This document shows positions 3,597 to 31,536 of a stretch of DNA of 33,305 nucleotides, in pieces; within the stretch, counting starts at the first letter, position 1; each line of letters begins with the position of its first letter. The notes beneath the pieces were generated by a model. The model saw nothing but the letters and a program-made list of their open reading frames with translations. It ran no database searches and was not told where the DNA came from. The stretch spans positions 302,123-335,427 of the forward strand of contig NZ_LT838844.1 in NCBI RefSeq assembly GCF_900176655.1. Reading direction: 5' to 3'. Source of the DNA: Collinsella vaginalis. GTDB taxonomy: Bacteria; Actinomycetota; Coriobacteriia; Coriobacteriales; Coriobacteriaceae. The translations under genes and the position numbers were made by a program.

Positions 3597-5372
3597 ATGT
3601 CCGGCATGAAATCAAAGGACGATCGTGTTCGTGACGTAAAGCGCCGCGCCACCTCCGTCCTTGACCGGTTCGCGAGCGACGCCAGTGGGCTCGATCACAT
3701 GTCGCGCGAGGAGATGGCGGCTATCGCCGAGGGATACATCAACCCTTTGCGACCGTTCTTCTCAGATGCCTGTGCGCGCGTGAGCCTGCCTGGCGCCGGC
3801 GTGTCTTATGAGTTGGACACAGCTTCGTTCGAGGCGTTTGCACGCCCACTTTGGGCCTTTGCCCCCATGTGGGCTGGCGGCGACGAACTTGCTGCCTATG
3901 CGGAGGTTTACCGATCCGGGCTGATCGCCGGCACGGACCCCGCCCATGCTGAGTACTGGGGGGAATGCCGCGACTACGACCAGAAGTTCGTCGAGATGGC
4001 TGCCATCGCATACGCACTCCTGCTCGCACCCGACATTCTTTGGGAGCCGCTTCCGGCAGATGCGCAAGAGCGTGTCGCGACATGGCTCGGTCAGGTCAAT
4101 CGCTATGAGGTCTGGGATAACAACTGGCTCTTCTTTCCGACCTTGGTGAATCTCGCTCTCCGCAGCCTAGGTATGCCTTGGAGCCCTGCGGTTCTCAAGC
4201 GCTGCCTCGACGGGATCGACGCCTGCTATCGCGGAGACGGCTGGTACACGGACGGCCCGGTCGGCGGTCCCAATGCCAACACGGATTATTACAACCCGTT
4301 CGCCTTTCATTTTTACGGGCTTGTCTACGCGGTGTTTGCCCGCGATGTCGATCTCGAACGCTCTGAGGAGTTCGCGCGCCGCGCCTCTGCCTTTGAGCCT
4401 GATTTCCGTCGCTGGTTCTCCTCCAGGGGGGAGTCTATCGCGTATGGTCGTTCGCTGACCTACCGTTTCGCGCAGTCTGCGTTCTACTCGATGGCGCTGC
4501 TCGCGCGGGCCGAGGGCGTTCCGGTGGATGTCGATCCGGTCATCGCGAAGGGCATCGTCGCCCGCAACATTGTCGCGTGGGCATCTCTTCCTTGTACCGA
4601 TTCCTCCGGTGCGCTCCAGGTTGGGTACCACTACCCAAACCTCCATATGGCTGAGGGATACAATGCGCCCGGGTCCCCGCTGTGGGCGTGCAAGGCGTTC
4701 GCCATGCTCGCGATCCAGTCGTGCGACCCGATCTGGGAGACCCCTGTCTCGCCGCTCGAGTTGGCAGACGGCGTGTTTCCCGTTGTGGGTGGCAGCATGC
4801 TTGTCCGCCGCGATCGGGGCGAGGCGACCCTCTACACCGGCGGTCGTACCCGCCGGCGCCGCTTCACCCACTGCGAGGAGAAGTACTGCAAGTTTGCGTA
4901 CTCAACACGATGGGGCTTCTCAGTATCGGTTTCGTCGTACTCGCTCAAGGAGGCAGCGCCCGATTCGATGCTCGCCTTTGAGGTCGATGGGATGATCCGC
5001 GTCCGCTCAGAGAGCGAGTTCGTGCGCTTGCTCGACGGCGAGCTTGAGAGCGTCTGGTCGCCGTGCTCCGGCGTCCACGTCACAACGCGGATCCGTCCGG
5101 ACGCCGAAGGGCATGTTCGCACTCATGTGGTCGAGAGCTCGCTCGTTTGCCGTGCGTTCGACTGCGGGTTTGCCGTTCCCGCCGAATCCTTGGAAGAGGC
5201 TGAGGGCGTCTGCGAGGTGCTCCCGGCCGAGGACGGTATCCAGGGCGAGCCGTTCTCTTTCAAGGCAGAGCCCAACACCAATCTTATGGCTCCTAAGACA
5301 GCGATACATGCCGTCGTGTACGACATCCCCGTGGGGATTTCGCGGATAGTGACGAAGGTTCGAGAACGCTGA
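3597..5372 (+). CDS. DUF2264 family protein, candidate intracellular exo-beta-glucuronidase
   Basis: A 591-residue protein that matches DUF2264 as I know the family: FARPLWAFAPMWAGG (near 80), DYDQKFVEMAAIAYALLLAP, NNWLFFPTLVN, DGWYTDGP, FAFHFYGLVYA, YGRSLTYRFAQSAFYSMALL, VGYHYPNLHMAEGYNAPGSP. The first 400 residues should form an alpha/alpha toroid and the rest beta structure. My recollection, not checked, is that DUF2264 proteins belong to glycoside hydrolase family GH154, which includes beta-glucuronidases. No signal peptide is visible, so it acts in the cytoplasm. First gene of the operon; the GH88 gene follows after 39 bases. It may remove saturated glucuronate while GH88 removes unsaturated uronate. 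A seven-G stretch sits 5 bases before the ATG; a second ATG at 3606 is a possible start. Family call firm, activity inferred. Confidence 0.8.
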   Translation: MSGMKSKDDRVRDVKRRATSVLDRFASDASGLDHMSREEMAAIAEGYINPLRPFFSDACARVSLPGAGVSYELDTASFEAFARPLWAFAPMWAGGDELAAYAEVYRSGLIAGTDPAHAEYWGECRDYDQKFVEMAAIAYALLLAPDILWEPLPADAQERVATWLGQVNRYEVWDNNWLFFPTLVNLALRSLGMPWSPAVLKRCLDGIDACYRGDGWYTDGPVGGPNANTDYYNPFAFHFYGLVYAVFARDVDLERSEEFARRASAFEPDFRRWFSSRGESIAYGRSLTYRFAQSAFYSMALLARAEGVPVDVDPVIAKGIVARNIVAWASLPCTDSSGALQVGYHYPNLHMAEGYNAPGSPLWACKAFAMLAIQSCDPIWETPVSPLELADGVFPVVGGSMLVRRDRGEATLYTGGRTRRRRFTHCEEKYCKFAYSTRWGFSVSVSSYSLKEAAPDSMLAFEVDGMIRVRSESEFVRLLDGELESVWSPCSGVHVTTRIRPDAEGHVRTHVVESSLVCRAFDCGFAVPAESLEEAEGVCEVLPAEDGIQGEPFSFKAEPNTNLMAPKTAIHAVVYDIPVGISRIVTKVRER

Positions 5373-22876: not shown

Positions 22877-22953
22877 GCGGCGTTACCTCAGCTGGATAGA
22901 GGGTCTGACTACGAATCAGAACGTCACAGGTTCGAATCCTGTACGCCGCACCA
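22877..22953 (+). tRNA. tRNA-Arg(ACG)
   Basis: Complete cloverleaf: acceptor GCGGCGT with ACGCCGC, D stem CCTC/GAGG, anticodon stem TCTGA/TCAGA with loop CTACGAA (anticodon ACG, read as ICG after deamination), T arm ACAGGTTCGAATCCTGT. Discriminator A and CCA are encoded. Confidence 0.97.
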
Positions 22954-29790: not shown

Positions 29791-30555
29791 ATGGAGGACG
29801 AGCTCAGCTCCCTGTTCGACGATGAGAACGAGTTCCGGGCCTATGAGGCGTTCTGCGCCGCCGAGGAGCGGGGGCCTGAGCCCTTCGACCTGGACCGCCC
29901 TGCCCTCGTCTGCCGCTGGCGCATGGCAGGCAAGCGGGTTCCCCTGCTCAACCGCCATATCCGCGCGCTTTCCCGGCGCACCGTTCAGGGCGCGCCGCTT
30001 CCGCGGAACCTCATCTCCTGGGTCAAGCAGCATATCGAGTGGTCGCTCGCCGAGGGGGACTATGACGAGCGTGACGGCGTGCTCATGCTTGTTGTCGACG
30101 TGAACGGCAATGCCGCGATGTCGGTGGGGCCCTATGCGCCCCTGGCGGACGTTTCTGCGGCGGGGCTTTGCGGCCGCGCCGGGCTCGCCGCCGTCGAGGC
30201 AGCGGAGACCGGCGTGGCGCCTGAGGCGCTCTGCCAGGTCGACGGCGATCGGCTCACCGTGTTCCAAGGAGAGGGCGCCGTGCCGTCCGGTGCGCTTACC
30301 CTGATCGAGCAGCTGGCCGACACCCGGGGCCTCGCCTGGGACCGCGCTGGGCTGCCGAGGGGGGTGATGGCGACAGGGGATACGGCGCCCGGAGCCGCAG
30401 CGCCTGTTTCCAGTCTCGATTCGGTTGTCGTCGGGGGAGGGAGTCTCTTCCTCGTCTCCGATGAGCACGGGATCGTGCCTGCCGAGGGTGCCGATGATCC
30501 TTTTATCTCGCTCTGCATTGCCGGTTATAAGAAGATATTCGATAAAACGAGATAA
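29791..30555 (+). CDS. Unknown 254-aa cytoplasmic protein
   Basis: A 254-residue protein without signal peptide or membrane span and with no motif I can assign. It begins with an acidic stretch, MEDELSSLFDDENEFRAYEA. Some segments loosely recall a class IV PLP aminotransferase: PLLNRHIRALSRRTVQGAPL, then VDGDRLTVFQGEGAVPSGAL followed by a LIEQLADTRGL helix, and SLFLVSDEHGIVPAEG near the end. However the catalytic lysine region is not recognisable, so if related it would be a degenerate, non-catalytic member. GAGGAGG precedes the ATG. It stands alone between purH and the structured element. Confidence 0.6.
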   Translation: MEDELSSLFDDENEFRAYEAFCAAEERGPEPFDLDRPALVCRWRMAGKRVPLLNRHIRALSRRTVQGAPLPRNLISWVKQHIEWSLAEGDYDERDGVLMLVVDVNGNAAMSVGPYAPLADVSAAGLCGRAGLAAVEAAETGVAPEALCQVDGDRLTVFQGEGAVPSGALTLIEQLADTRGLAWDRAGLPRGVMATGDTAPGAAAPVSSLDSVVVGGGSLFLVSDEHGIVPAEGADDPFISLCIAGYKKIFDKTR

Positions 30556-30569
30556 TTTAAAATAGCTCT

Positions 30570-30743
30570 CGTTTCCTTGCATACAGAAGGAAACGGCGGG
30601 AGTGCAAATCTCCAGAAGTGCGGCAGTGCATTCGAACAGACGGAGTAGGAGCCGGTTTTCTCATGCGAGAACCTGCGGAAACACCGCGGGATCAGTTGGC
30701 CTACTCGGCAATCCCGGATTCACTGCCGCACTTCTGGAGGTTT
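30570..30743 (+). ncRNA. Candidate structured RNA or invertible element
   Basis: A 9-bp hairpin (CGTTTCCTT/AAGGAAACG, 30570-30595) is followed by a 23-bp inverted repeat with arms at 30606-30628 and 30721-30743; 19 of its pairs are perfect and contiguous, with one G-T pair further out. The 92 bases inside pair as well: GAGTAGG with CCTACTC (30642-30648 and 30700-30706), enclosing GGTTTTCTC/GAGAACC and CTGCGG/CCGCGG hairpins. An alternative hairpin, GGAG-TGCAAAT-CTCC, overlaps the left arm and would exclude the long stem. It lies between the gene at 29791 and the response regulator. No open frame in it is supported. Confidence 0.55.
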
Positions 30744-30816
30744 TCAACATCGAGTACGATCGGCGGCCGCGGATCGCTGTCATCGGGCGACGCTGTCGGA
30801 CGTTGCCGGCCGATGT

Positions 30817-30822
30817 CATAAT
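30817..30822 (+). promoter_or_regulatory. Possible -10 box of the two-component operon
   Basis: CATAAT lies 36 bases before the response regulator ATG and downstream of the structured element. No good -35 lies at 17 bases. Confidence 0.35.
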
Positions 30823-30858: not shown

Positions 30859-31536
30859 ATGGCAGAATCCGAAGCGCTGATTTACATCGTCGAAGACGAC
30901 GCCGCTATTCGCGAGGAGCTTATCGCCGCGCTCGAACGCAACAGCTTCAGGACCGCGGCATCCACCTCCTTCGAGCATGTGACGGAGGAGATCCTCGCCG
31001 CCCACCCGGACCTCGTCCTGCTCGATCTGACGCTTCCCGGCACCGATGGGCAGTTCATCTGCCGTGAGGTCCGCGCGGCGAGCGATGTGCCCATCGTGGT
31101 CTTGACTTCGCGCGTGACCGAGATCGACGAGGTCATGAGCATGAACCTCGGCGCTGACGACTTCATCGCCAAGCCCTATAGCACCCGCGTGCTCGTTGCG
31201 CGCATCCAGGCCCTGCTCAGGCGGGCCGCAGGCAGTGACACTCCGGCGACGCTCAGCCACAACGGCGTGGAGCTCGATCCCGCCCGCTTCATCGCGTACG
31301 CGAACGGCAGCCAGGTGGAGCTCACCAAGAACGAGATGCGCATCCTTTCACTGCTCATCTCCCGGGCCGGTGCGATCGTCTCCCGTGAGGCCATCATGCG
31401 CGACCTGTGGGATTCCGAGGCCTTCGTGGACGACAACACACTCACCGTGAACATCAACCGCCTCCGCGGCACGCTCGAGAAGATCGGCGTGACGGGCTAC
31501 CTCACCACCCACCGCGGCCGCGGTTACTCGGTGTGA
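30859..31536 (+). CDS. OmpR-family response regulator
   Basis: A 225-residue regulator. The receiver domain has the acidic pair Asp13-Asp14 (IYIVEDDAAIREEL), the phosphorylated Asp56 in DLVLLDLTLPGTDG, a switch threonine in VLTSRV, and the conserved Lys in FIAKPYSTRVL near 108. The C-terminal winged helix (VELTKNEMRILSLLISR, SREAIMRDLWDSEAFVDDNT, YLTTHRGRGYSV) binds DNA. GAGGGGA precedes the ATG. The kinase gene overlaps its stop codon by 4 bases. Confidence 0.95.
   Translation: MAESEALIYIVEDDAAIREELIAALERNSFRTAASTSFEHVTEEILAAHPDLVLLDLTLPGTDGQFICREVRAASDVPIVVLTSRVTEIDEVMSMNLGADDFIAKPYSTRVLVARIQALLRRAAGSDTPATLSHNGVELDPARFIAYANGSQVELTKNEMRILSLLISRAGAIVSREAIMRDLWDSEAFVDDNTLTVNINRLRGTLEKIGVTGYLTTHRGRGYSV

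What the first reader, a model, noticed from the sequence alone, without database searches (positions are those of the whole stretch)
30570..30743. Strongly structured element before a two-component system
A 9-bp hairpin, a 23-bp inverted repeat and nested internal stems together form a plausible multibranched RNA of about 175 bases. A competing hairpin with loop TGCAAAT overlaps the left arm, as in a switch. GGAAAC followed by GTGCAAATC recalls part of cobalamin riboswitches, but the rest does not fit. Alternatives are a MITE or an invertible segment between the repeats.
Basis: partly seen in the sequence, partly recalled or inferred. Interest (0 to 1): 0.68.

Follow-up and report, generated by a model that had tools for sequence, protein, structure and literature searches.

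The report
Dispersed palindromic repeats in Collinsella genomes
The long hairpin before the two-component system is one of at least 14 copies of a palindromic DNA repeat scattered between genes in this Collinsella genome, and relatives of it, found across the order, are landing pads for an RNA-guided insertion sequence, so it is probably not an RNA switch for the neighbouring gene.

Summary
The hairpin is real (z = -8.8), but it is not specific to this locus and shows no sign of being a riboswitch. It is one of 14 copies of a roughly 175-bp intergenic palindrome in this genome, with an AT-rich stretch on exactly one side in all 14. At the two-component locus it is absent from the relatives checked, and it ends about 60 bp upstream of the response-regulator -10-like box. 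It belongs to a larger family: 41 of 42 Collinsella genomes sampled, all sampled genera of its family, and some of a second family in the order. All share one geometry: outer arms 45-70 bp from the dyad, an inner hexamer (GAGTAG-like) at 27-30 bp, and a conserved box, ACCTGCGGTTTTGTTG, at or within a few bases of the axis. Arm sequences differ between subfamilies, and at one orthologous site they have been replaced as matching pairs. In relatives, an IS110-family element sits at this box at 21 or more sites; its predicted bridge-RNA loop matches the box at 14 of 15 positions (1 of 200,000 random targets does as well). Rfam, phage, plasmid and literature searches found nothing. Best reading: a new family of REP/MITE-like palindromic repeats that serves as an RNA-guided IS110 target; the factor that binds or moves it is unknown. 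Inversion is untested in this strain.

The parts
30524..30565 (.). AT-rich stretch on the left side of the element, overlapping the 3' end of the upstream gene
   Evidence: All 14 copies have a 50-mer of at least 70% AT within 110 bp on exactly one side and none on the other; about 1% of background windows do. Without an empty site it is not proved to be part of the inserted unit.
30570..30595 (+).
   Evidence: Present in the sequence; not found at this place in the other 13 copies.
30606..30628 (+). Left arm of the palindrome, AAATCTCCAGAAGTGCGGCAGTG (family consensus TNAAAACTTCCAGAAGTGCGGYAGTGAA)
   Evidence: Mean pairwise identity 88% among 14 copies.
30643..30648 (+). Inner hexamer GAGTAG
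   Evidence: At 27-30 bp from the axis palindromy rises again, to 0.71-0.93 in own copies and 0.76-1.00 in relatives.
30671..30681 (+). Axis box ACCTGCGGAAA (superfamily consensus ACCTGCGGTTTTGTTG); the dyad lies at about 30674.5
   Evidence: In relatives the box start lies 3-4 bp before the dyad in nearly every element. An IS110-family element inserts here in relatives.
30701..30706 (+). Inner hexamer CTACTC, partner of GAGTAG
30721..30750 (+). Right arm, CACTGCCGCACTTCTGGAGGTTTTCAACAT (family consensus TTCACTRCCGCACTTCTGGAAGTTTTCAACAT)
   Evidence: Mean pairwise identity 91% among 14 copies. The trailing CAACAT is more constant than its left counterpart, so the unit has a direction.
30817..30822 (+). 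Likely -10 box (CATAAT) of the response-regulator gene, outside and downstream of the element
   Evidence: A matching box stands at this place upstream of the gene in most relatives.
30859..31536 (+). Response regulator gene (context, not part of the element)
   Evidence: Pfam Response_reg and Trans_reg_C.

Best explanation
It is one copy of a multi-copy, intergenic, palindromic DNA repeat of the REP/MITE kind, belonging to a family spread over Coriobacteriaceae and sparsely beyond. SHOWN: dispersed copies; fixed geometry of arms, inner hexamers and axis box; arms that differ by subfamily and are replaced at an orthologous site; use of the axis box as an insertion site by an IS110-family element in relatives. 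INFERRED: the arms and hexamers are bound as double-stranded DNA by a two-fold symmetric protein complex (a transposase-like or other host factor, not identified), which constrains arms and spacing while the rest drifts; the IS110 is steered to the axis by its bridge RNA. The downstream two-component system is a bystander.
For: Fourteen copies in the own genome, none within a recognised gene. Arms are 88-91% identical pairwise, but the interior outside the boxes is 34%, the same as the flanks (34%), so arms and boxes are under constraint and the rest is not. Palindromy peaks at 27-30 and 45-69 bp from the axis in 14 own and 21 foreign elements whose arms are unrelated in sequence. 41 of 42 Collinsella genomes and 48 of 149 genomes of the order have matches. 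At one orthologous site in seven species the centre and flanks are conserved while the arms are of GTGCGG or GTATGCGG type on both sides, with one hybrid. Tandem against single copies at another site differ by one unit of about 134 bp. IS110 insertions at the box: 23 left junctions, at least 21 with a hexamer at -30 to -32, and all five two-sided cases palindromic. The predicted target loop reads GACCTGC (7/7) and pairs 7/8 with CGGTTTTG; 1 of 200,000 random targets scores as well; the guide geometry follows PMC11208160.
Against: No transposase or binding protein has been identified, and no empty site or target duplication was found, so mobility is inferred from dispersal and copy-number differences. 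The own genome has no detectable IS110, so that role is shown only for relatives. The own axis box differs from the IS110 target (TTTCCGCAGGT instead of AAAACCGCAGGT). The middle of the IS110 gene is masked, so its family rests on end fragments: PF02371 above cut-off, PF01548 below. The relation between the own family and the wider family rests on geometry, hexamers and the core of the box, not on alignable full sequence.
Confidence: 0.77

Rival explanations
1. A structured RNA (riboswitch or small RNA) that works in cis on the two-component system or in trans.
For: Very stable fold, z = -8.8; G-U pairs are tolerated in the arms.
Against: No Rfam family at E 10 for the window region, nor in 20 loci of relatives at E 1 (which found only an unrelated RNase P above threshold). 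Interior stems are not conserved; covariation is slight. Fourteen unrelated loci carry it; at this locus it is absent from relatives and lies upstream of the likely promoter. The variable arm position 38/132 shows G-U, G-C and A-C with no preference for a pair on either strand.
Confidence: 0.08
2. An invertible segment: a site-specific recombinase flips 30629-30720 between the arms.
For: Perfect inverted repeats. The asymmetric centre occurs in both orientations relative to the AT-rich side and relative to the hexamers in relatives.
Against: At orthologous sites of relatives the centre keeps one orientation. The spacer is only 92 bp, without a conserved promoter or coding sequence. No recombinase gene was noticed next to the copies; genes were only called roughly.
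Confidence: 0.05
3. An ordinary MITE: a deletion derivative of an insertion sequence sharing its terminal repeats.
For: Terminal inverted repeats, small size, intergenic dispersal.
Against: No full-length partner was seen: in the own genome arms occur only as pairs about 110 bp apart; in relatives one 1.4-kb pair of GTGCGG arms exists, and it is an IS110 inserted in the axis, not a parent. Interiors of own copies are no more alike than unrelated sequence, unlike copies of a recently amplified MITE. The same axis box occurs with unrelated arms.
Confidence: 0.12
4. A REPIN moved by a RAYT (Y1 tyrosine transposase).
For: GAGTAG contains the GTAG typical of REPs (PMC8266576). RAYT-like genes occur in most Collinsella genomes.
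Against: Own genome: no Y1_Tnp match. No element of this family within about 2 kb of 18 RAYT-like genes; several of those genes have other, shorter palindromes beside them. The unit is far longer than a REP.
Confidence: 0.05

Closest known systems
REP/BIME elements as targets of IS110-family insertion sequences (IS621 in E. coli; ISPpu9, ISPpu10, ISPa11)
   Same: Intergenic palindromic repeats in which insertion sequences insert at a fixed place (PMC1525189); for IS621 through a bridge RNA (PMC11208160); tandem copies occur.
   Different: About 130-175 bp instead of 20-50; three concentric conserved zones; arm sequences differ widely between subfamilies; no link to RAYT genes; found in Coriobacteriales.
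ERIC-type palindromic repeats of enterobacteria
   Same: About 127-bp imperfect palindromes in intergenic DNA, tens of copies (size from general knowledge).
   Different: Different organisms; the present family has variable arms around a constant axis box. No sequence comparison with ERIC was made.
MITEs (e.g. Correia, RUP, bcr elements)
   Same: Short, dispersed, terminal inverted repeats (PMC2229807 reviews such small repeats; only its abstract was seen).
   Different: No partner transposase found; interiors not homologous between copies.
Integron attC sites
   Same: Arms that vary in sequence yet stay complementary, fixed layout (general knowledge).
   Different: The conserved part is the axis, not the ends; copies are dispersed rather than in a cassette array.

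Membership tests
Cobalamin riboswitch | Match to the Rfam covariance model | tested here: not met
   No match at the gathering score or up to E 10.
Collinsella-1 RNA (RF01700) | Match to the Rfam covariance model | tested here: not met
   No match in the window region or in 20 loci of relatives at E 1. That the motif is RF01700 is read from PMC2864571.
Structured regulatory RNA in general | Compensatory changes supporting conserved helices | tested here: inconclusive
   Arms: 2 of 23 pairs with a two-sided change; interior: no conserved helix. Paired arm replacement between orthologues fits a DNA dyad as well as RNA.
MITE | Terminal inverted repeats and dispersed copies | tested here: met
MITE | Autonomous element with the same ends | tested here: not met
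   No such element seen in the own genome or for GTGCGG arms in 42 genomes; the own genome is 92.6% complete.
MITE | Target-site duplication | tested here: inconclusive
   Orthologous intergenic regions of the nearest relative are not alignable.
REP/REPIN-RAYT | 20-50 nt palindrome preceded by GTAG | tested here: not met
   The unit is about 130-175 bp; GTAG occurs only inside the inner hexamer of some subfamilies.
REP/REPIN-RAYT | Associated RAYT gene | tested here: not met
   None in the own genome; none of 18 RAYT-like loci in relatives carries the element.
IS110 target repeat | IS110-family element inserted at a constant position | tested here: met
   In relatives only: 23 left junctions, at least 21 in such elements; five two-sided palindromes.
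IS110 target repeat | Bridge-RNA target loop complementary to the site | tested here: met
   14 of 15 positions; 1 of 200,000 random targets as good. Prediction, not experiment.
Invertible DNA segment | Both orientations at one locus | tested here: inconclusive
   One orientation in the orthologues examined; reads of this strain are not available.

The most novel reading that the evidence does not exclude
A Coriobacteriales-wide class of symmetric nucleoprotein sites: a constant axis box and hexamers flanked by arms that are rewritten in matching pairs, following a fast-evolving host protein that reads the arms (a recombinase-like or chromosome-organising factor), and exploited by RNA-guided IS110 elements.
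Probability: 0.3. Interest if true: 0.78.

Novelty: new variant of a known kind. Interest (0 to 1): 0.56.

Why it matters
Dispersed palindromic repeats are best known from proteobacteria; here is a widespread, apparently undescribed family in gut actinobacteria, with a layout not matched by REP, ERIC or MITE elements as far as could be checked. It gives a natural, multi-site example of an IS110 bridge RNA matched to a repeat family. The arm replacement at orthologous sites poses a testable question: what reads the arms, and why do both change together?

Tried and rejected
Cobalamin riboswitch and Collinsella-1: no Rfam match. DNA uptake sequence: AAGTGCGGT equals the Haemophilus uptake core (general knowledge), but AAGTGCGG is not enriched in the own genome (59 sites against 157 for the control pattern). 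RAYT/REPIN. Phage or plasmid origin: no similar DNA; the two viral hits for the centre pattern are not palindromic. Most non-Collinsella hits of the genome scan (Streptomyces and others) are not palindromic. Empty-site analysis against the nearest relative failed because the intergenic regions are unrelated. First alignment A1 had some copies in the wrong orientation and was replaced by A2. Rotating the arms onto a conserved RNA structure gave no consensus helix inside the arms and none for the wider set.

Full report
1. The observation. The 9-bp hairpin, the 23-bp inverted repeat and a strong fold are all at the stated place. The fold is far better than shuffles on both strands, as a DNA palindrome gives.

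2. It is a repeat. A search of the whole genome (2.16 Mb, 92.6% complete) with this element returned further copies. Thirteen were fetched, making 14 with a core of 127-129 bp between the arms. A covariance model found the same 14 strongly, and a few weaker elements with other arms. In none does the element lie inside a clearly recognised gene, though genes were called only roughly. Arms are 88% (left) and 91% (right) identical pairwise, the interior outside the boxes 34%, the same as the flanks. In all 14 one side, and only one, has a 50-mer of at least 70% AT, against about 1% of background windows. When copies are turned so that this side is on the left, the right arm carries a more constant CAACAT tail, so the unit has a direction.

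3. Not a leader of the two-component system. In the response-regulator upstream regions of relatives the element is absent. The nearest relative has instead a different element of about 190 bp with 27-bp terminal repeats in the same intergenic region. A CATAAT box at 30817-30822, also found upstream of the gene in most relatives, lies downstream of the element. Two scripts matter here: one search ignored strand and is valid only for + loci; one search corrected it.

4. A wider family. They are palindromes with other arms but the same plan: inner hexamers such as GAGTAG, GACCAG or GAGCAC, and a box ACCTGCGGTTTTGTTG whose start lies 3-4 bp before the dyad. Palindromy measured from the axis peaks at 27-30 and 45-69 bp in both the own copies and 21 foreign elements. 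In subfamilies with GGTACA-like arms a second pair of half-arms stands about 41 bp further out; this spacing was counted by hand, and the outer zone is visible. A sequence-only model of the centre matched 41 of 42 Collinsella genomes and, in a sample of 149 genomes of the order, all sampled genera of the same family plus some of others. Those counts are lower bounds because few candidates per genome were scored, and weak hits outside the family were not inspected one by one. The named records of one pattern scan show that the genus is Collinsella.

5. Arms change at fixed places. At one site in seven species, flanks and centre align, while the arms are GTGCGG-type on both sides in two species, GTATGCGG-type on both sides in four, and mixed in one. 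A second mixed element is at L135. At another site some species have one element and others two in tandem, differing by about 134 bp. Both arm types occur in one genome (G007), so arms are not uniform within every genome.

6. An RNA-guided insertion sequence uses the axis. In G011 two GTGCGG arms stand 1.4 kb apart; between them is an IS110-family gene inserted in the box, AACAAAACCG | IS | GCAGGTCG, where the orthologue in G009 is uninterrupted. A search with the IS end found further copies in eight genomes of the genus. Of 23 left junctions all read AAACCG before the IS; 21 have a hexamer at -30 to -32, and 20 carry a recognised arm. L140 and L158 do not fit the plan. In five cases with both flanks, complementary arms were found (in three of them the dyad lies about 6 bp from the box, which an earlier script with too narrow a range missed). 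The non-coding region holds an internal loop with CACUGACCUGCU on one strand and CCUCAAAUCCG on the other around a hairpin. By the published rule that the left guide pairs with the bottom strand and the right guide with the top strand (PMC11208160), this matches the box at 14 of 15 positions; 1 of 200,000 random targets does as well. The loop strands were picked by eye after seeing the target, so the control somewhat overstates significance. The own genome has no detectable IS110, although masked stretches could hide one.

7. Mechanism. The most likely reading is a DNA-level repeat: a symmetric site whose arms, hexamers and axis are constrained while the remainder drifts. That a protein complex reads it is inferred from the fixed spacing; no such protein is known. 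How copies arise (transposition, recombination, conversion) is open: the unrelated interiors of the 14 own copies are hard to square with recent amplification from one source, and the paired arm changes at an orthologous site suggest replacement in place.

8. Known families. It fails the tests for cobalamin riboswitch and Collinsella-1 and for REPIN/RAYT, and lacks an autonomous partner expected of a MITE. It works like REP elements in being an IS110 target (PMC1525189, PMC11208160). Literature searches for such repeats in Collinsella or Coriobacteria found nothing, in an open-access library only.

Noticed in passing
L078 (G001:C18), reverse complement about 1168-1348: The nearest relative has a different element of about 190 bp with perfect 27-bp terminal repeats (GGACAAAAATGACGTTAGTCGGTATTT) in the same intergenic region.
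   Followed up: partly
L075 and L076 (G000:C2:39496-39664, C3:121743-121885): A second subfamily in the own genome, with GGTACAGGTTTT arms and an outer pair of half-arms about 41 bp further out.
   Followed up: partly
L135 (G041:C9), 1785-1912 and 3758-3890: Two elements flank an XRE/ImmA-type gene, next to AbiH and AAA_21 genes, a possible defence island.
   Followed up: no
L212, L220, L226: RAYT-like genes in Collinsella with other short palindromes beside them (such as TGGGAAAATAGGGAC and TTTGGGGTCTGACCCCAAA).
   Followed up: no
L109, L111, L120, L122: Streptomyces species share TGACCTGCGGTTTTGTTG just after what looks like a gene end; not palindromic, probably unrelated.
   Followed up: no
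L133, around 168-203: Atopobium sp. UBA1382: the box between arms GAGGTTTGGGTTCA / TGAACCCAAACCTC, a possible member outside Collinsella.
   Followed up: no
window 22877-22950: A tRNA gene, the only Rfam match in the window.
   Followed up: no
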